Shown piece by piece: positions 28,901 through 46,300 of a stretch of DNA of 64,000 bases (the stretch's first letter is position 1; each line of letters opens with the position of its first letter). The notes beneath the pieces are model-generated. The model had not been told where the DNA came from. It ran no database searches and worked only from the letters and a program-made list of their open reading frames with translations. The DNA comes from Brachyhypopomus gauderio (Eukaryota; Chordata; Actinopteri; Gymnotiformes; Hypopomidae), in the NCBI RefSeq assembly GCF_052324685.1, contig NC_135226.1:21670251-21734250 (forward strand), written 5' to 3'. The position numbers and the translations under genes were made by a program.

Positions 28901-30106
28901 TAAGGCTCCGTCTGTGTACCGTGAAACGGCCTCATCGCAGGGTCGTTCTCCCGGCCCGAGAGGCTAACGCGGAGGCAGGAGACAGTGATTTAGTGCACTG
29001 CAGTCATTAGCGCACGCCTGACTCTCCCTTACTCTAGATTAGATTAGATGTCCTCTGAGATGTTTGGTGAAGGAGAAAGCGGTTTGTAGCTATATTTTTT
29101 CTACTGTTTTCATTTTGTTTACGTTGCTCATGCTCCATTCTTGGGCCTGGTGTTGCAAATGCACAGTAACATGCAGGCGGTAGAGTGCAGTGAGTGGGAG
29201 AGACGCGTGTCTGCAGGCTTGTGGCTAACTGAAGGGTTTTGCGGTGAGCATTCTGGATCTGTCTGGTTAAAGAGGATCTCTACGAAAGGAGAGAGGGTTC
29301 TGTCAGGGGCACGTCAGCTGGACCAAACGGCATCCTCTTCACCAACGAGCAGCTTTCCTGCTTATTCTGCCTCTCACAACTCTCTGTGTGCATGAGGTAA
29401 GACAGGTGTGTGTGTGTTTAACCATAGACTGTACTGTTCCCCGTCTCAGACAGTAGAGAATCCTACCTGCTGTGTGTTATTATAATCATGCCAAGAAGGA
29501 AAGTGATTGGATGAAATCAGTTGTCAGTGTTCATCCTCGTTGCTGTTTTAGGGTCGTTATGAATGGACAGAAGTGTTGTCAGAGATCCCTGCTCTCATCA
29601 CGTGGTCAAACACCCCAAAAAAAGACAAAAATAAAAACCAAACACTGCCATTCAAACACACACTATTCTATGATGGTCACCCAACCCCTCCTGGCCAAAA
29701 TGTGTCCACACTACTATTGTCATTATACAGCATGCATGACGCCACTAGATATAACTGAACGACAACACCAGCAACTATCGGTTGCTTATGATATCGGTTA
29801 CATGCTTTTTCAACATTTGTCCAGAAAAAGAGAAATGGCGCCCTCTTCTGGTCATATAAAGTGTTGGCGTGTAGCTCTGCTACCGTCTATTCTCAGAACA
29901 CACCCGAAGAGAACACAACCCCATTTGACTGAGGAAGATGAGGAGGAGGAAGAAGCACATAATGAGAGCACACACCTCTGATGGAGTGTTGGTGACACAG
30001 AGCCAGACTCCGTGTGAGTCATCACGCCTTGGACTGAAGCCGAGAGTTCAAATGAATGAATGAATGAATGAATGAATGCTCCAACACTTTCACCGATAGC
30101 CAGCTA
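25959..30106. other. Intergenic; tandem array at 26705-26940
   Basis: A 16- to 17-bp repeat, CTAGATCAGACCCATCT or CTAGATCAGACTCATGC, occurs about 14 times at 26705-26940. A CpG-rich patch lies at 27640-27760 and (GAAT)n at 30051-30078. Otherwise I find no gene, RNA or transposon end. Confidence 0.5.
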
Positions 30107-30166
30107 TAGCCCCGATGTTACTGTGCCGTCCCTCTGTGTTCCGTCACACTAATACCGGAAGTACGG

Positions 30167-30349
30167 CACAGCGGCTTGTGTCCCGGTACACACAACAGAA
30201 CAGCGGCTTGTGTCCCGGTACACACAGCAGAACAGCGGTTTGTGTCCCGGTACACACAGCAGAACAGCGGCTTGTGTCCCGGTACACACAGCAGAACAGC
30301 GGTTTGTGTCCCGGTACACACAGCAGAACAGCGGCTTGTGTCCCGGTGT
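30167..30349. repeat. Subterminal 32-bp tandem repeats, left arm (6 units)
   Basis: The unit starts CAGCGGCTTGTGTCCCGG and ends TACACACAGCAGAA, with C/T variation in CGGC/TTTG. The same unit in reverse orientation forms the right-arm array at about 36272-36378 (four units). Subterminal repeats of this kind typically serve as transposase-binding sites in DNA transposons; that role is inferred here. Confidence 0.9.
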
Positions 30350-31377
30350 TGTGCCGAATTCAGCACCCCCGCCGTATCTTACTTTTCTGTTAACGTTGAT
30401 GAAAATCGCTGATTTACAGAAAAGAGCTCAATGTTGTTTTATACTATGATTACACGAGAAAATGTAGTTTGTGCATAATGTACAAAATATGTACACAAAC
30501 GATGGTTTCAGCGATGTGATTACCAAAAGGTAGTGACTTTAAAATGATTTTACAAAACGTTGGCATATTAAAGAGTTTACGAAGTAATGTTTTGATTGAT
30601 TGATAGCATCAACAACAGTTGCAATGAAGGCATGGATAGTTATGTCCTGTGTTCGACACATACTGTGTTGTATGTGAGTGCTGTGCTTGTTTCAGTCTGT
30701 TAGAAAAACCATGTACTGACGACGAGGCCTGACAGCAGTGCATCCTGTTATATTTAATACTGAGATATAATTATAAAATTATTATTCTGTATTTTCTAAC
30801 TGACATGCATATACATTTTATATTAAACTTATGGTGTTGCATCTGTAAAGCTGGTTGGTTGTGTCTATATGGCTACAATGATTTTGAGCTAGAATCAACT
30901 ACATTCAAACAAAAAGTGACAGCTACAAGGGGGTGCTTTTTACAACAGGCCACCTGCCGTAAATTGCACACCTCCCCTAATATTGGCTACACTGGTCCTA
31001 TATTAATGACTCATAGAATCAACATGATTTGGTCTCAACTATGTCATTATAAAGTGAATTTGACCTACCATCAACAGAGACTGAGTTACAAGGGGGTGCA
31101 TTTTACGGCAGGCTACCTGCCCGTAAAATGCACCCCCCCCCCTAATTTTGGCTACACTGGTGTTACACCTGTGATAAAAGGGGGGAAACTGATTAAAATG
31201 ATATATTCACAAAAAACTGCTTTAGATTCACATGTTTTGGAGTCAATTCCATCCATTACTATATTTCTTAGTTTTGAAATAACAGTTTTTAGTTTGAGTT
31301 TTCTTGTTTTTTTTGTTAAAAGAATAGAATACATTTACTGCACATTTATATAAAGAAATAATTGGTAATATTATTTT

Positions 31378-31503
31378 TTATTTTACAGTTAAATAAATAA
31401 CAGCAGTTATGTTATTAAATAAATAACACGTATAATCTTTATCAACTGGAGGCTTCTGGACACAGTCATAGTGGTACCATCTCTCACAGTTGTCACAGCA
31501 TAT
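31378..31503 (-). pseudogene. Terminal exon remnant encoding a PHD-like zinc finger
   Basis: After an acceptor TTTTTGTTCCAG the minus strand reads ICCDNCERWYHYDCVQKPP and continues to a TAA 126 nt later. CC-x2-C-x2-WYH-x2-C spacing with the aromatic W before the zinc-binding H is the C-terminal half of a PHD finger. The N-terminal CxxC half should be in an upstream exon that I could not find. The RTE insertion at 32583-34640 lies between this exon and the protease-like exons, so the gene was probably spliced across that gap before decay. Confidence 0.6.
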
Positions 31504-32582
31504 CTGGAACAAAAAGAAAAGCAGGTCTAACTGAAAGGTGCCCATCTAGATTGTAGAAATTACTATCCTGATTTACATTTTTAGTTCAAAGATTTGATGC
31601 AGTGCTCTACTGATAAGTGGAGCTTTTCTAAAGTGCAAAGATGTTACAAAACAAATGATTGAGAATGACATGCAAATGAGTGCAGTAAAGAGTTAGCATA
31701 TGAAACTGCCTAAAAAGTGAGTTTATAGGACTTGAGCTGAGTTGAGTTTAGGGAGAGGTTTGTTCCATCACTAAGTGGTGAGGAAACTGAGGCAGCATGA
31801 CCTAGACATACGAGCATGCGTAAACAGAGACATGTCAAGGGCCCAGAGGTGGAAGCCTGGATGCAAAGCGGTGAAAGGCTGAGCCTTTTGAAAATGAAAA
31901 TGTGAGAATTAGACCTTCCTTACTTGAACAGGAAGCCAGCATGGTGTTTTCAACAAGAATCACATGTTGACAAACAATGTGAGCTGCAGTATTTTGAATG
32001 CTTTCTAGAAGCCAGCAAAATGTGAGTTACAGTAGTCAAGTGTAAAGATGACTAGAGCTTACTGATGTTGCTCGTATTGATTTAGCATTTCAAGAGAAAA
32101 GATCAAACTCATTAACTCATGCAATGACACTTGAAGGTGAGGTTGTGTGAGGTGGGTGAGCTATCCCAGGCTACATGACCAGATAAACCCTGAAGGTAGG
32201 ATGAGAACCAAGCATCACAAGAAAGTGATGAAATTCACATGTAGTAGTTCACAGTATCAAAAACAGTAGACCAATCTAGTAGGATGTGAACAGAAGACAA
32301 CCTCTCCCTGGCTTTGTGGGGAGGTTTTGTTATTGACAAGACAGCAATATCTAGTGAATACCCTGGTCTGTACAACAGATGGTTGACTTAAAGAAATTTG
32401 ACCCTCTCAAGATACAAATAAAACTGAGAAAAGACAGCCTGTTTCAAGGTCTCTGACAGAAATTTGAGCAAATGGGTCTAATTCACAGTATAACTGAGTA
32501 TAATTATAAATGAGTATAATTTGCAGTTTGTAGGATTTAACAGATCCCTCAGAAAATGCTATATTATGACATTATGTACGCT

Positions 32583-34640
32583 GCTTCTTCTTCTTCTTCT
32601 TTCGGCTAATCCCGTTTAGGGGTCGCCACAGCAGATCAAACTCCTCCATCTGGCCCTGTCCTGAGTGTCCTCCACTGGCACACCAGCCACTCTCATAGCC
32701 TCTACAACTGCATCCATAAACCTCCTCATAGGTCTACCTCTCCTCCTCTTGCCTGGAAGTTACATCCTCAAGACCCTCCTACCAATATACCTCTCCTCCC
32801 TCCTCTGTACATGTCCAAACCATCTCAATCTCGCTTCTCTAACTTTATCTCCAAAACATGCTACATGTGCTGATCCTCTAATAAACTCATTTCTGATTCT
32901 ATCCTTCCTCGTCACTCCAAATGAGAATCTCAACATCTTCATCTCAGACACCTCCATCTCCCTCACCTGTCTCTTTGTCAGTGCCACTGTCTCCAGTCCA
33001 TACAACATAGCAGGTCTCACTACTGTCCTATAGATCTTTCCTTTCATTCTAGCCGACACTCTTCTATCACAGATCACCCCAGACACTTTATGCCATCCAC
33101 ACCACCCTGCCTGCACTCTCTTCTTTACCTCTCTTTCACTTCCTCCATTACTCTGTACCTTCGACCCTAAGTACGTAAACTCATCAACCTTCACCAAATC
33201 AACTCCTTGTAACTGGACCTGTCCACCGTCTGCCCTCTCATTCACACACATGTACTCTGTTTTACTCCTGCTCACTTTCATTCCCCTGCTCTCCAAAGCA
33301 TATCTCCATCTTTCCAAGCTCACCTCCACCTGCTCCCTACTCTCACTACAGATAGGCCAATAGGACTCCTGCCTATCCTCGTTCGTCAGTCTGTCCATGA
33401 CAATTGCAAACAGGAAGGGACTCAGGGCTGATCCCTGATGTAGTCCTACCCCAATGTTAAACCCATCTGTCATTCCTACCGCACATCTCACTGCTGTCAC
33501 ACTGTTCTCATATATATCCTGCACTACCCTCACATACTTTTCTGCTACTCCTGACTTCCTCATACAATACCACAGCTCCTGTCTCGGTACTCTATCATAA
33601 GCTTTCTCTAAGTCAACAAACACACAATGTAACTCCTTCTGTCCTTCCCTATACTTCTCCATTAACACTCTCAAAGCAAACATGGCATCTGTGGTGCACT
33701 TAGCTGGCATGAAACCATACTGCTGCTCACAGATCTCTACCTATCCTCTAAGTCTAGCTTCCACTACTCTTTCCCAGATTTTCAGGATGTGACTGATCTA
33801 CTTTATTCCCCTGTAATAACTACAGCCCTTATTCTTGAAATTCGGCACCATTATGCTTCGTATCCACTCCTCCAGCATCTTCTGACCTTCCAAGATTCTG
33901 TTAAATAACCCAGTCAAGAACTCCACTGCTGTCTCTCCCAAGCATTTCCATGCCTCCACGGGAATATCATCTGGTCCAACTGCCTTACCACACTTCATTC
34001 TCTGAATTGCAGCCCTTACTTCCTCCTTGCTCACCTGAGGCACTTCCTGATTCACAACCTCTACCTCTTCTAACCTTCTTTCCCTTTAATTCTCTTGATT
34101 CATCAGTTCCTCAAAATACTCCTCCCACCTTCCCAAGACACTCTCCTCACCACACAACACATTTCCATCTTTATCCTTTATCATCCTAACCTGCTGCACA
34201 TCCTGCCATCATGGTTTCTCTGTCTGGCCAATCTGTACAGATCCTTTTCCCCTTCCTAAGTGTCCAACTTCTCATACAGCTTGCTATATGCCTTCTCTTC
34301 AGCTTCTGCCACTGCTCTCTTTGTCTTATGACACATCTTCTTGTACCTCTGTCTACTTTCTTCATCTCTCTGAAAATCCCAATTTTTTTTTAGCCAAACG
34401 CTTTCCTCTCAAACTTTCCTGAACGTCCTCATTCCACCACCACAAGTCCTTGTATATCTTCCTCTGTCCTGAGGTCACACCAAGTACCTTCCTAGCCACA
34501 TCCCTCACTGCATTTGAAGTTTCATCCCAGGTATCCAGAACACCACCACCATTACCCAGTACCTGCCTCACCTCATCCATGAATTTTACACACAGTCCTC
34601 ATCCTTTAACATCCACCACCTGATCTTAGGTTCCGCTCTC
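32583..34640 (-). mobile_element. RTE-type (Rex3-like) non-LTR retrotransposon, 5'-truncated and dead
   Basis: Minus-strand reverse-transcriptase blocks appear in three frame-broken pieces. These are a thumb-upstream segment with KCGKAVGPDDIPVEAWK (33798-34055), the palm with FVDLEKAYDRVPRQELW and GLHQGSALSPFLF (about 33400-33710), and the C-terminal part with KSKTEYMC-like and FTYLGS motifs. The catalytic F/YADD segment is missing: the protein jumps from VMDRLTNEDRQESYW to PICSESREQ, so it cannot polymerise. The 3' end carries a (TTC)n run, which reads GAA on the element strand, as in other RTE copies. A second copy of the same 3' region is on the plus strand at 43205-46825. Confidence 0.85.
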
Positions 34641-34811
34641 AGAATGATTATAATATTAATATTATTATATTATATAATGATATAAGGAGAATGATTGCTG
34701 CTGCCAAATCTTTTTCCTTTTAATTTGACTTGCAGAATATAACTATTATCAGCTTAACTGAAAAGACTTGATGAGCACTTACATTTGAATTTAAAATATG
34801 GTAACTCTTAC

Positions 34812-35017
34812 CGTCAGCATCCAGTGCTGGTGCTCATTGACAACACCCACAATAATTTTGTAGTCCTTGGGGTCTATCTGTAAATGTGACCAAAGGTAGT
34901 GAATGCTGTATTTGGATATAAGAGATACAATACATTTGTTTACCAATGCAGTACACACCTTAATTCTGGAAAATGTCCTCATCCAGACTGCAGTCATTGC
35001 ATACGTGTCGATCATTG
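34812..35017 (-). pseudogene. Two exon remnants of a C48/Ulp1-like cysteine protease
   Basis: Exon 35017-34959 (acceptor TGCAG, donor AAG|GTGTGT) gives AMIDTYAMTAVWMRTFSRIK-type sequence in frame. Exon 34877-34812 (acceptor TTTACAG, donor ACG|GTAAGA) gives IDPKDYKIIVGVVNEHQHWM. The VN-x-x-x-HWML pattern after a hydrophobic strand is the catalytic-histidine block of Ulp1/SENP C48 peptidases. The first exon resembles the preceding helix (W.ND..I..Y..L type). The aspartate and cysteine blocks were not found. Canonical splice sites and phase-compatible joining support a former coding gene of the surrounding transposon. Confidence 0.55.
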
Positions 35018-36439
35018 CTGCACGAGTGGTATTGTTGCTGTTATAATTCTTCACGAGCACCATAAAAAACAACCCCCTTGTAACTCAGTCTGTGTTGATG
35101 GTAGGTCAAATTCACTTTAGAGTTACACAGTTGAGACCAAATCATGTTGATTCTATGAGTTTCATTAACATAGGACCAGTGTAGCCAATATTGGGGGGGG
35201 GGGGGGGGGGGGTGCATTTTACGGAAGGTGGCCTGCCGTAAAATGCACCCCCTTGTAACTCAGTCTGTGTTGATGATAGGTTAAATTCACTTTATAATGA
35301 CATAGTTGAGACCAAATCATGTTGATTCTATGAGTCATTAATATAGGACCAGTGTAGCCAATATTAGGGGAGGTGTGCATTTTACGGCAGGTGGCCTGTT
35401 GTAAAAAGCACCCCCTTGTAGCTGTCACTTTTTGTTTGAATGTTGTTGATTCTAGCTCAAAATCATTGTAGCCATATAGACACAACCAACCAGCTTTACA
35501 GATGCAACACCATAAGTTTAATATAAAATGTATATGCATGTCAGTTAGAAAATACAGAATAATAATTTTATAATTATATCTCAGTATTAAATATAACAGG
35601 ATGCACTGCTGTCAGGCCTCGTCGTCAGTACATGGTTTTTCTAACAGACTGAAACAAGCACAGCACTCACATACAACACAGTATGTGTCGAACACAGGAC
35701 TATCCATGCCTTCATTGCAACTGTCGTTGATGCTATCAATCAATCAAAACATTACTTCGTAAACTCTTTAATATGCCAACGTTTTGTAAAATCATTTTAA
35801 AGTCACTACCTTTTGGTAATCACATCACTGAAACCATCGTTTGTGTAGGCCTACATATTTTGTACATTATGCACAAACTACATTTTCTCGTGTAATCATA
35901 GTATAAAACAACATTGAGCTCTTTTCTGTAAATCAGCGATTTCCATCAACGTTAACAGAAAAGTAAGATATTTTTCTCTCGCTATTTTTAGCGATATCGA
36001 AGCGGATTGTATCCGTTTTCGAAAGCAGACCGTACTGTGCGCGTTCACGAGAAGGGGAAGCATTTCACGGCGGGGGTGCTGAACTCGGGTTACCGATTTA
36101 TAACGTGAAAAACAACGTGTTTTCTTTCTCTTCTTTTTTGCTCGCAGAGCCTAATGGTCGTGATGTCAAGCTAAAAATTTATTGACGATAAAATACTTGG
36201 ACAGAACACTGTGCAACTTACAATGTGACACACAATGTGTGTTACAATTTGCGTTTCTCATAAAAAATATACAAGCCGCTGTTCTGCTGTGTGTACCGGG
36301 ACACAAGCCGCTGTTCTGCTGTGTGTACCGGGACACAAACCGCTGTTCTGCTGTGTGTACCGGGACACAAACCGCTGTGCCGTACTTCCGGTATTAGTGT
36401 GACGGAACACAGAGGGACGGCACAGTAACATCGGGGCTA

Positions 36440-37616
36440 CAACTCCTACTGCTTTCACCTGTGCCTACATGTGACTTCTGCAGTCATATTGTTTTCTGAT
36501 TTTAAATTAATCTAATTCAAAAAGAAGGTCACAGACATTATTTTGTGCTGTTTGTTCCGACAGATGGGAGAGCAGCCATCTGCATTTGTTGCCCTCCAGG
36601 TTTGTTGACCTTTTATCGTTACGTTGCTGGTATTGAGATCAAATTAATTACTATTTAGACATTATTCATACCCTTCTGGCCACTTTCATAAATTACAATG
36701 TTAAATACAAAAATAACAGAGGGTTCTGTTGTAGTTCCCCAAGTTCACAACTTTAAAAACAGTAGTAAACAAAATTAAAACGTCTTTATTTATCCTGTTT
36801 CTAAATTGTCACACTGTCATCACTGGTGTGGGACTCTAGCTAGTGATAAGTGGTTGTCAGTTTCCAACAGATTCTCCAAAGCTCTTGGCCACTTGGGCCA
36901 CTGTGATTGGCTGTTTCTCTGTCCAACATCAGCAGGTACTGTGCACAAACCGAAACACATCATTCAATATCTGGAGAATCTGACAACAAAAGATTAAAAA
37001 ATACAATCATAAAGGCAGGTTGTCGTTGTCATTATGTTCCAAATACCTACTGCTAACGTGAAAATATATAGTGTAATGCTCACATATCAACCTTTGGCAG
37101 TTTTTGACAAGTATATACAAACTACCCAAATTAAAATATAAAAATAGAATAAAACCCAAAAGCAGTAACAAAAAAAAAATCAGATATAGAAAAAATAAAT
37201 AAAAATTCAGATATTTATTTGTCTCTACTTTGATGTATTAATGTCAGGGTGCTTATTTGTACGGAGGGCGGTGCGGCTGGGTTCACTGTGTATCTGATCT
37301 ACTGTAGCGGCGTGTCTGGGATGAAGATGTACAGTGTTACTGCAGGCTAGCGGCTACGCAGCAGAATAAACAACATGGTATCAATGGTCTCCACAGCAAC
37401 AGACTTCTAGATGCAGCATCACCAGCCAAGTGGTAATATGGATTGTGGCCTTTGAATGCACGATGCACACAGCATCGCTGAGACCAGGGCACATGTCCCC
37501 TTGTAAGAACTAGCTTTAAATGGGCTGAGTACATGAGTACACACAGGGTATGTGAGAGAGTCGTTCTTACACTGACCTATGGCCTGGGACTCCATAGAGC
37601 TGTCATCACTGGTATG

Positions 37617-38822: not shown

Positions 38823-41850
<3,028 letters not shown>

Positions 41851-42668
41851 GATTGTCTCCACCTGTAAATTCAGAGTTATTTTAGTCACATAGAGCTTGG
41901 GATTAAGGTTAGAAAAAAACAAGGCATCGCGTATTCATGGAAATACTTTGTCTTCTCTCTTAACATCTTTATTTAGTCCTATACTGTCATACCCCAGGCG
42001 AGTTGTATTATACACATGCGCCACAGGTCTACTGATGGCGTGGTGACAGGTTAATGCCTATAGACCCCACTCCATCAGCTGGTCTCATCTCTCAGTCTGC
42101 ACCTGTTCACGCCTTTAAAAAGACCCGATGATGCGTAAAAACGTTTGACGTGCGAAGATAAGCGGCGCCGAGAACAGCAAAGCGTAAGATAATAAATAAT
42201 AATAGTAAATAAATAAAATAAAATGTGTTTTTCATGCTTCTCCTTGGAGCGTTAGGGAGTACAACACAAGCGCGTTACGGTTTCATTTCAGGTTCGTTCT
42301 CCAGATAAACGCAGAGCCCAGCGGGCAAAACGAACAATTTCCGCAAATATTACATAAGAGGAACTGGGAGTGTCTCGTACGGGCCGTTTCAACAGGACTG
42401 AACGTCTACTAGAACATTCTATGCATGTCGTTAAATTGTTGCCGAGCGTCCCAAACGAACCGACCTGCCGCGGTTCCGATGTGACGGAGCATATTCGTGC
42501 CCGTCCCGGTGTATGTGTGCATTCACTACACCTGAATACGCACTCTGGACCATCCACATACATACAGTTTAGTGGACATTAAAATAGGTCGATGTGTTAT
42601 TAATCCCGATATGAATCTAACGTTTGTCTTTAGTTCAGTCCGTCCAGACAGAATCATATTCCACCTAC

Positions 42669-42930: not shown

Positions 42931-43306
42931 GCGCAGACGCCGGTAGAGACTTCTGATGAATCCGCGTGGACAGCACTCACGGCGTGCGGCAGATAAAAAA
43001 TGTTAAGAGTATTAATCTTTTTACACGAGTATTGTCCAATATCCGCGCTGGTATCGATATTATGGATATTTGGGTCGATCCGCCCAACTCTAGATGACAC
43101 CGAACGCAAGTTAACGGAACTTTCGCGAGCCACCGCTCAGTACCTGACGCAAGACAAGTGAGCCACCAACATTTCTATTTCAAGTCACTCCAATTGTATG
43201 CAATTTGTACACAATGATAGGATCAGAAATGAGTTTATTAGAGGATCAGCACATGTAGCATGTTTTGGAGATAAAATTAGAGAAGCGAGATTGAGATGGT
43301 TTGGAC

Positions 43307-46300
43307 CAGTGACTGTATATATAATGGACGGTACGTCGCCGTTGACTCCCATTGGGTGTATCTCAATTCAGGGGCTGCAGCCCACGAAGTGTGCATTTGT
43401 AGGCCAATTACGTCACTGCGCCGCGCCGAATGTTGTCCCAATTCGTCAAGTACCCGTCGCTGCAGAATCAAAAGTCCAGGGGGTGGAGCTAGATCTAGAT
43501 CCAACTCCTCCCACCGTCCATAGTTTCTTTTGGTCGGTCCAGGGGGCGGAGCTGCATCTAATCCAACTCCACCTACGTGTCGCTTACGTTTTCCGACCAG
43601 GAAATAGAAATCCAATAAATTCACCCTTTTACCGTTTAAAGATCAAAATGTTCTTTGAATGTTATTTAAATAACACAATACACGTTTTTTAAAGTTTACA
43701 AGAAAATGTAAAAGTGGACAGGAATAATGATTGCCAACATAATAAAGTACAGTACATTTCTTAAATATGTACTATTTCATTTTTTTTACCTTTAATAAAA
43801 TTACTTTTTTCGTTAGGACGGTACAGTTCAGGCGTGCAGAATGGACAGTGGTATTTACTACAACATGTAGTGCACTGCACAACTGAAAGCGTCTGTCCTT
43901 TTTTTCAAAACCGTGATATGCATCTATAGATGGATGGAAAAATATAAATAGCATGATATTAGTTGTGAAGTTTTTCAGTGAACTGGTTAATGAGGATCAT
44001 GGCCGTTACATGCACACACTACTGAATAACAATCCCCCTCGATGTGTCCATGCTGTACCGAACAGCACAACCATTACAAATTTTAAGTAACTACAGCAAA
44101 CACTAATTAATTCAACAGTTTATGTCCAATATGAAGAACACAACATACATAAGTATTTAATACATCTGTATTCTGTTTAGCTAACCTCTCGTCTTCTAAC
44201 ATCAGTTTTTACCATCACTTACGTAGACACCTAGATTAGATAAACTTAACAGTGTTCATGCAAACAGAAATAGTCAGATTTAGTATAATCACCAAAGGAA
44301 ACTAGTTACTAGCATTAGTGAGATGAAAATTGGTTTATTATGAACCTACTTTCACATTCTTGATTGTTCACAAATGAACTGCATGTGAGTAAATAAGAAT
44401 AGCAATTTAGGATGACAACGGTGATTTGGAATGGCTGATCTGATACAACTCCTCCTGCGTAGTGCAATTACTTCAGACCAATGAAAACACGATGGTGGGA
44501 GGAGTTGGATCTAGATAAGCTCCACCCCCTGGACTTTTGCTTTTGCAGCGACGGGTATCTCCAATTCGTGGGCTCCTTCTTATGCAGCCGACGAATGTAG
44601 CCTTCAAAACCCCGAAAACGAAGGATGCATCTGAGTATCCTTCGCGTCCCACCATATCCCAGGATTCATTGCTCTATGAATAATAAACAGGCGACATGGC
44701 GGAGTCTAATGTACGGGCCGAAGAATTCATTTTTAAATGTCGGTATTTTTTAAATATGGAAATTTATACTGCAATGAGATGCTAAATAACGTGCCAATTA
44801 TTAATGATATTGCAGGTAAACCTGTGCTTTTAGTATTTACTAAAGTGTAACATTTTTTAAAATACATTGAATTTTGTTATTGTTATACTTCCTGCCAAAC
44901 ATGTGAATACATGTTCAACGCATTTTCTTTTAGGCATTTATAATAATATAATAAAAATACATTGTATTTGATGGTGCCTTTGTGACACTCAAGGTCACCT
45001 TACATAATAATAATAATAATAAAAAATTAAGACAGAGAAATGGTACAAATAAATAATGCATAAAATAGACAGAAGATCGGAATCATACATTAAAGGCAAC
45101 TCTAAACCAGTATGATTTGAGACCTGACTTAAAATACGTAATAGAGTCAGAGTTTCTTAAATCGGGTGGTAAGACATTCCATAGCCTAGGACCAGATGTT
45201 ATTTGTGGGTGATGCGATATAAAACTCAAGTTCTTATTTTTAGGGACCAAGGAAAAAACGGATGTAACACATATGTAACGGGGCAGAGCGTGGTCACGCA
45301 AACATACGTCTTGCGAAGACTAGACTGTCTCATTTAACAGCCGTGAGATGCAGCCTACCTGGCCTTCGAAGTGTGTGGCCACCGTGTGCTGCAGTCTACG
45401 CGGTCTACGTAGGCTGCAGCCCCTGAATTGAGATGCACCCATTGTGAACTTTTGAAGCCACCAAGATGGCCGCACGGACACCGCCATCTTGGATGCGCTT
45501 GCGCAGTAGATGAAAATTGGAGCCAGAGCATGCGCATTAGAACCGGTAGGCAGGACAGTATCTCCACCAGAGCATGCGCATTAGAACCGGTAGGCAGGAC
45601 AGTATCTCCACCAGAGCATGCGCATTAGAACTGGTCGGCAGGACAGTATCTCCACCAGAGCATGCGCATTAGAACCGGTAGGCAGGACAGTATCTCCACC
45701 AGAGCATGCGCATTAGAACCGGTAGGCAGGACAGTATCTCCACCAGAGCATGTGCATTAGAACCGGTAGGCAGGACAGTATCTCCACCAGAGCATGCGCA
45801 TTAGAACCGGTAGGCAGGACTGTATCTCCACCAGAGCATGCGCATTAGAACCGGTAGGCAGGACTGTATCTCCACCAGAGCATGCGCATTAGAACCGGTA
45901 GACAGGACTGTATCTCCACCAGAGCATGCGCATTAGAACCGGTAGGCAGGACAGTATCTCCACCAGAGCATGCGCATTAGAACCGGTAGGCAGGACAGTA
46001 TCTCCACCAGAGCATGCGCATTAGAACCGGTAGGCAGGACAGTATCTCCACCAGAGCATGCGCATTAGAACCGGTAGACAGGACAGTATCTCCGCCAGAG
46101 ACCGTATCTCCGCCCCGACATTCGTTAGGATACGGCCACCAGTATAAACACTTTTGACGTTTTACAAAATAATCAAAGGTAAAAGGTTTTAATACTGCTC
46201 TCGAGAGTTTTGATAGAGTTTTGCTGTTGAGCGCGTTCACATTTGAGTGTCTGGTAAAACAACGTAGCTATTAACTGTCAATCACCTTATCGCCACACCA

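What the first reader, a model, noticed from the sequence alone, without database searches (positions are those of the whole stretch)
30107..36439. Large inverted-repeat transposon carrying Ulp1-protease-like and PHD-like exons
The ends TAGCCCCGATGTTACTGTG are inverted, and long arms (about 1.0-1.3 kb) contain 32-bp subterminal tandem repeats (six and four units) and ~190-bp modules delimited by a TTTTACGGCAGG palindrome. Inside, on one strand and with good splice sites, are exon remnants resembling the catalytic-His block of C48/Ulp1 proteases (VNEHQHWML) and the second half of a PHD finger (ICCDNCERWYHYDC). C48-type modules are known in some large eukaryotic DNA transposons such as certain Mutator-like and KDZ/Zisupton-type elements. 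The combination with a C-terminal PHD finger, foldback-like arms and TA at both ends is not one I can assign, so this is the best candidate for an undescribed family.
Basis: partly seen in the sequence, partly recalled or inferred. Interest (0 to 1): 0.78.

Follow-up and report, generated by a model that had tools for sequence, protein, structure and literature searches.

The report
Jumping gene nested in jumping gene
In an electric knifefish genome, one kind of jumping gene landed inside another and lost its own right end, and the combined piece then spread using the outer one's ends; it is a mobile hybrid of two known kinds rather than an undescribed family.

Summary
The structure is real, but its ends lie 12 bp further out on each side: window 30095-36451, flanked by a perfect 8-bp duplication, CTTTCACC. 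It is a nested chimera. The outer ends belong to a multi-exon transposon with four full copies (10.6-12.6 kb) elsewhere in this genome; three of them are 98.4-99.5% identical to the fourth, C6, over long stretches. It is related to the Kyakuja-Dileera-Zisupton (KDZ) group (CxC4 domain, 8-bp duplications, a homologue carrying Zisupton's CxC7), but Pfam model PF18758 was not matched. The body (30347-36088) is a gutted Ginger1 transposon: TGTNR end, sitting exactly in a CCGG of the outer element's 32-bp repeat. The C48 and PHD exons are remnants of its integrase-C48-PHD gene; Ulp1+PHD is a published Ginger1 architecture. A LINE sits inside. A second complete copy on another contig shares the junctions and LINE at 98-99% and has its own 8-bp duplication, so the chimera moved as a unit on the outer ends. 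A third copy is truncated. The species is inferred to be Brachyhypopomus gauderio. New here: the mobile chimera, and fish Ginger1 elements with 1.7-2.7-kb inverted arms.

The parts
30087..30094 (.). left 8-bp target site duplication CTTTCACC
   Evidence: identical to 36452-36459
36452..36459 (.). right 8-bp target site duplication CTTTCACC
30095..36451 (.). whole chimeric element (6357 bp)
   Evidence: homology with the copy on contig C14 stops exactly at these two ends (95 bp and 149 bp of window flank were compared); duplications
30095..30346 (+). outer (KDZ-related) left end: terminal inverted repeat plus 32-bp array; ends in the CCGG at 30343-30346 used as Ginger1 target
   Evidence: 96.4% over 252 bp to the end of full copy C6; array
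36085..36451 (+). outer (KDZ-related) right end: 144-bp subterminal piece, 32-bp array and inverted tip
   Evidence: 97.9% over 144 bp and 98.9% over 178 bp to C6
30347..36088 (.). inner Ginger1 element, internally deleted, starting TGTTGTGCCGAATTC; its last 7 bp and the right CCGG are lost, with a TCGG microhomology at the junction
30375..31142 (+). left inverted arm of the Ginger1 part, with 163-175-bp modules
   Evidence: about 92% identical to the arms of Ginger1 copies C1c, C9 and C8
35202..35970 (-). right inverted arm of the Ginger1 part
   Evidence: I1, I3, I4; about 90-92% to the same copies
34809..35069 (-). C48 (Ulp1) exon region holding the catalytic-His block, Ginger1 remnant
   Evidence: matches P0023 residues 637-696, 61%, E 7e-25
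31426..31503 (-). second half of the PHD finger, Ginger1 remnant
   Evidence: matches P0023 residues 816-841, 85%, E 2e-10; Pfam PHD E 1e-5
32581..34680 (-). stretch holding a LINE fragment nested in the Ginger1 body (limits are those of the gap in the Ginger1 match, so approximate)
   Evidence: RVT_1 E 1.3e-21 in the ORF at 32760-33740; gap in the match to C1c

Best explanation
The element is a non-autonomous nested transposon. A Ginger1 element inserted into a CCGG inside the 32-bp subterminal repeat of a KDZ-related transposon (shown: exact CCGG|TGT left junction). A deletion with TCGG microhomology then removed the right tip of Ginger1 and nearly all of the outer element's interior (shown: junction sequence; inferred: order and mechanism). 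The Ginger1 body lost its integrase exons and took in a LINE. The whole unit was then moved by the transposase of full-length KDZ-related copies acting in trans on the outer tips, making a new 8-bp duplication at each site (shown: two complete copies with the same junctions and different 8-bp duplications; inferred: which transposase did it). Without its right end the Ginger1 part should no longer be able to move by itself (inferred).
For: Outer tips are 96-99% identical to those of full copy C6, whose interior gives no further DNA match to the window. 8-bp duplications in 7 of 7 complete copies with a flank control. The body matches elements C1c, C9 and C8, which start TGTAG and are flanked by CCGG on both sides in 3 of 3. 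P0023, a B. gauderio protein whose contig length equals that of C1, carries H2C2, integrase core, C48 and PHD, matches C1c over nearly its whole length (residues 596-632 unaligned), and matches the window only at the C48-His and PHD exons. The C14 copy shares both junctions and the LINE: 98.44% over 4937 aligned positions. A third, truncated copy on C33 is 99.6% identical over 943 bp. In 3 full outer copies (C6, C1a, C7a) 16 of 16 exon markers lie in open frames; in C7b 15 of 16.
Against: The outer transposase does not match the Pfam KDZ model PF18758 (not among the 25 of 39 families listed at E up to 10; absent), so its superfamily rests on CxC4, the 8-bp duplications and homologues. Whether the full copies are expressed or spliced as read is unknown. 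The C14 copy is not identical in plan: it lacks 231 bp present at window 31116-31346. Only two complete chimera copies are in hand, and no own-genome search was answered.
Confidence: 0.9

Rival explanations
1. An undescribed foldback-type superfamily with its own C48-PHD transposase gene.
For: The combination of features in the window looks unique, and the arms are unusually long.
Against: Tips and body match two different element families that exist separately in the same genome. The exons match a Ginger1 protein, and Ulp1+PHD is published for Ginger1.
Confidence: 0.03
2. The outer element captured the Ginger1 sequence by template switching during gap repair, not by Ginger1 insertion.
For: The right junction has a 4-bp microhomology and no Ginger1 tip; gap repair can copy in foreign DNA (general knowledge).
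Against: The left junction is exactly CCGG followed by the first base of Ginger1, which random switching would rarely hit.
Confidence: 0.12
3. The complete copies are a segmental duplication, not transposition products.
For: 98-99% identity over about 6 kb.
Against: Homology stops exactly at the element ends (95 and 149 bp of window flank compared), and each copy has its own perfect 8-bp duplication.
Confidence: 0.02
4. The outer element belongs to another superfamily with 8-bp duplications, such as hAT, and only shares the CxC4 cluster with KDZ elements.
For: No PF18758 match.
Against: CxC4 in 9 of 10 proteins of alignment A1. P0147 joins a 51%-identical transposase core to C48, F-box and CxC7, and CxC7 was defined on platyfish Zisupton (PMC12062965, passages). 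No hAT model appeared in the lists (one search shows 25 of 39 families).
Confidence: 0.1

Closest known systems
Ginger1 DNA transposons (Bao, Kapitonov, Jurka 2010, PMC2836005; abstract and passages seen)
   Same: CCGG target duplication, TGTNR ends, H2C2 and integrase core, Ulp1 plus PHD as in Ginger1-9_HM
   Different: Three fish copies have inverted arms of about 1.7-2.7 kb built largely of 164-bp tandem units and lengths of 4.4, 8.5 and 15.5 kb; the paper gives 40-270 bp and about 2.6-7 kb. The 15.5-kb copy was not checked for later insertions. The window copy has lost its integrase exons and right tip
Zisupton / KDZ transposons (passages in PMC12730594 and PMC9297572; the original 2012 paper is not held and was not read)
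   Same: 8-bp target duplications, terminal inverted repeats, multi-exon gene, KDZ-associated CxC4 cluster, C48 in relatives
   Different: No match to PF18758; PHD in the C-terminal part where P0147, and platyfish Zisupton as reported, have F-box and CxC7. In Pristionchus Zisupton no target duplications could be detected
Teratorn, a composite transposon (search listings and abstract starts; a passage in PMC6431247)
   Same: A DNA transposon fused with another mobile entity into one unit
   Different: That is a piggyBac-like element with a herpesvirus; here the cargo is a broken Ginger1 and a LINE

Membership tests
Ginger1 (inner part) | 4-bp CCGG (or CCGT) target duplication | tested here: met
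   3 of 3 complete copies studied in this genome; in the window only the left CCGG survives
Ginger1 (inner part) | TGTNR termini | tested here: met
   TGTAG in 3 of 3 copies, TGTTG in the window
Ginger1 (inner part) | H2C2 zinc finger and integrase DDE core | tested here: met
   P0023: E 3e-18 and 4e-16; no match to these exons in the window copy
Ginger1 (inner part) | GPY/F motif | tested here: inconclusive
   LGPFEI seen by eye in P0023; only a weak SH3_Tf2-1 match, E 0.009
Ginger1 (inner part) | YPYY motif | not tested
   not looked for
Ginger1 (inner part) | C-terminal Ulp1 (C48) or OTU, sometimes with PHD | tested here: met
   P0023: C48 E 5e-9, PHD E 4e-5, at its cut-off
Ginger1 (inner part) | TIR of 40-270 bp (descriptive range in the 2010 paper) | tested here: not met
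   inverted arms of about 1.7, 2.2 and 2.7 kb; taken as a variant, since the range is descriptive
Zisupton / KDZ (outer part) | 8-bp target duplication | tested here: met
   7 of 7 complete copies, 5 perfect and 2 at 7 of 8
Zisupton / KDZ (outer part) | KDZ transposase domain PF18758 | tested here: not met
   not listed; one search shows 25 of 39 families at E up to 10. The outer part is therefore called KDZ-related, not filed as Zisupton
Zisupton / KDZ (outer part) | KDZ-associated cysteine cluster | tested here: met
   CxC4 E 6e-13 in the rough exon join; 9 of 10 proteins of A1, the tenth being the gene model P0001
Zisupton / KDZ (outer part) | relationship to the platyfish Zisupton protein | tested here: inconclusive
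   no direct comparison; indirect link through P0147, which has CxC7 and F-box

The most novel reading that the evidence does not exclude
The outer element's 32-bp subterminal units each offer a CCGG and so act as landing pads for Ginger1. Insertion there turns a KDZ-related element into a carrier that spreads broken Ginger1 elements and their LINE cargo. Both partners carry a C48-PHD tail (firm in Ginger1; in the outer protein PHD is below its Pfam cut-off and C48 is seen by eye and in relatives), which could mean that the two compete for, or share, the same SUMO- or chromatin-dependent step of transposition.
Probability: 0.12. Interest if true: 0.6.

Novelty: new variant of a known kind. Interest (0 to 1): 0.38.

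Why it matters
It shows one transposon superfamily being carried and multiplied by another after losing its own right end, a route by which chimeric families arise and mislead classification by domain content. It also extends the size and arm length given for Ginger1 in 2010 and points to recent activity of a KDZ-related element in an electric fish: three full copies at 98.4-99.5% identity to a fourth.

Tried and rejected
Rfam scan of the whole window: 0 matches at gathering score. Pfam on the C48 exon alone: no match; it was resolved through the full Ginger1 protein. Paper search for transposon, Ulp1, PHD finger, terminal inverted repeats and fish together: 0 papers. Search for nested and trans-mobilised transposons (3 of 4 terms): 0 papers. 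The 2012 Zisupton paper and the 2014 KDZ paper are not held. Passages of a giant-transposon review and a composite Kolobok paper described no element like this one.

An AlphaFold model of the outer-family relative P0002 was too poor to use (mean pLDDT 53.8, pTM 0.30), so no fold search was made. PF18758 in the own genome, the count of further chimera and Ginger1 copies, and a protein search of the own genome did not complete. Of the 36 matches, 16 are outer tips (all followed), 6 belong to the three Ginger1 copies studied, 2 lie inside the window and C14 elements, and 12 were not followed. The three Ginger1 copies are thus a sample of an unknown number.
Full report
Observation. The inverted ends, arms, 32-bp arrays (5.6 and 3.4 units) and spaced modules are all in the sequence. 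A search of the own genome with the first 301 bases gives 36 matches. Sixteen start at the tip, forming seven complete elements and two lone ends. The element in the window is 30095-36451. Its flanks carry CTTTCACC twice. All seven complete copies have 8-bp duplications, five perfect and two with 7 of 8; among 140267 offset flank pairs, 121 match at 7 or more, 7 of these fully.

Genome. Contigs C7 and C1 of G000 have lengths 33802652 and 55040054. The species is therefore inferred, not given.

Outer part. Four copies of 10.6-12.6 kb (C6, C1a, C7a, C7b) were compared with C6: the other three are 98.4-99.5% identical over long stretches. The window shares with C6 only the tips with their arrays and a 144-bp subterminal piece. 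The full copies hold a multi-exon gene on one strand. Pfam on ten of its exon ORFs finds CxC4 (E 2e-9, above its cut-off), and C2H2, SAP and PHD below theirs. A rough join of the exons found 22 fish proteins; the best is from B. gauderio itself (P0001), the others are 39-51% identical except one Metynnis fragment at 84%. Nine of the ten proteins in alignment A1 carry CxC4, and four show C48 at E up to 10, best 8e-5; P0001 itself shows PHD and SAP below cut-off and no C48 in Pfam, though a C48-like Cys box is visible by eye. PF18758 was not seen. P0147 from Onychostoma has a core 51% identical to P0001 over 448 residues followed by C48, F-box and CxC7. CxC7 was defined on platyfish Zisupton, one isoform of which is reported to hold an F-box (PMC12062965, passages). 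Zisupton makes 8-bp duplications (PMC12730594, passages), although none could be detected in Pristionchus (PMC9297572, passages). I therefore call the outer element KDZ-related, close to Zisupton, without filing it there. All 16 exon markers lie in open frames in C6, C1a and C7a, and 15 of 16 in C7b; splicing was not proved.

Inner part. The window body from 30347 matches three other elements at about 90-92% in the arms: C1c (15521 bp), C9 (8546 bp) and C8 (4363 bp). They start TGTAG, end CTACA and have CCGG on both sides, 3 of 3. Their inverted arms are about 2.2, 2.7 and 1.7 kb and consist largely of 164-bp tandem units. C1c encodes P0023, which has H2C2 (E 3e-18), integrase core (4e-16), C48 (5e-9) and PHD (4e-5). 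Those are the features of Ginger1: CCGG or CCGT duplications, TGTNR ends, integrase, Ulp1 or OTU, and in one Hydra family Ulp1 with PHD (PMC2836005, abstract and passages). P0023 matches the window element in two places only: residues 637-696 (C48 with HWML) and 816-841 (second half of PHD). The integrase exons and the C48 Cys-box exon gave no match there.

Junctions. On the left, the outer 32-bp unit reads ...TTGTGTCCCGGT; Ginger1 begins right after its CCGG (30343-30346, start 30347). On the right, Ginger1 stops 7 bp short of its end, the right CCGG is missing, and the outer sequence resumes, with TCGG common to both. This fits insertion of Ginger1 into the array followed by a microhomology deletion. 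Gap repair with template switching is possible but explains the left junction less well.

The chimera moved. The C14 copy (6150 bp, duplication ACTGGGCA) has the same two junctions and the same LINE. It is 98.44% identical over 4937 aligned positions and 98.9-100% in the other main blocks, but lacks 231 bp found at window 31116-31346. Homology stops exactly at the ends. C33 holds a truncated third copy of the left part: 99.6% over 943 bp, with no further match longer than 200 bp to the window element, C6 or C1c in the following 27 kb or so. So insertion of Ginger1 and of the LINE came before the last transposition. The outer transposase acting in trans is the likely mover, since the Ginger1 part has no right end.

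Novelty. Each partner belongs to, or is related to, a known kind. New here are the mobile KDZ/Ginger1 chimera and Ginger1 elements with arms far longer than the 2010 range. I did not find either in the searches made, of which only listings, abstracts or passages were read; this is not proof that they are unpublished, and Repbase and Dfam were not available.

Noticed in passing
G000:C1:47916882-47932402 (L024+L025), G000:C9:9549279-9557824 (L022), G000:C8:21961-26323 (L023): Ginger1 elements with about 1.7-2.7-kb inverted arms of 164-bp tandem units, the longest 15.5 kb, outside the published Ginger1 range.
   Followed up: partly
P0143, P0005, P0010: Relatives of the outer transposase are named 'HMG domain-containing protein 3-like' or 'HMG domain-containing protein' in other fish; the vertebrate gene HMGXB3 may derive from this transposon group (name-based lead only).
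   Followed up: no
P0011, Metynnis hypsauchen: A fragment 84% identical to the rough outer protein over 29% of it (67% over 14% of P0001) while other fish are at 39-51%; a possible recently shared element in South American fish.
   Followed up: no
window 43162-43692: An ORF holding the same stretch (RIRNEFIRGSAHVACFGDK) as the LINE ORF inside the element: probably another copy of that LINE (by eye).
   Followed up: no
window 39123-41934, minus strand: ORFs reading like an HSP70-family gene ([14 protein letters not shown]), about 3 kb beyond the element (by eye).
   Followed up: no
window 30946-31121 and 35208-35415: Short TTTTACGG palindromes in the arms; the truncated C33 copy breaks at about window 31110, next to one of them.
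   Followed up: no
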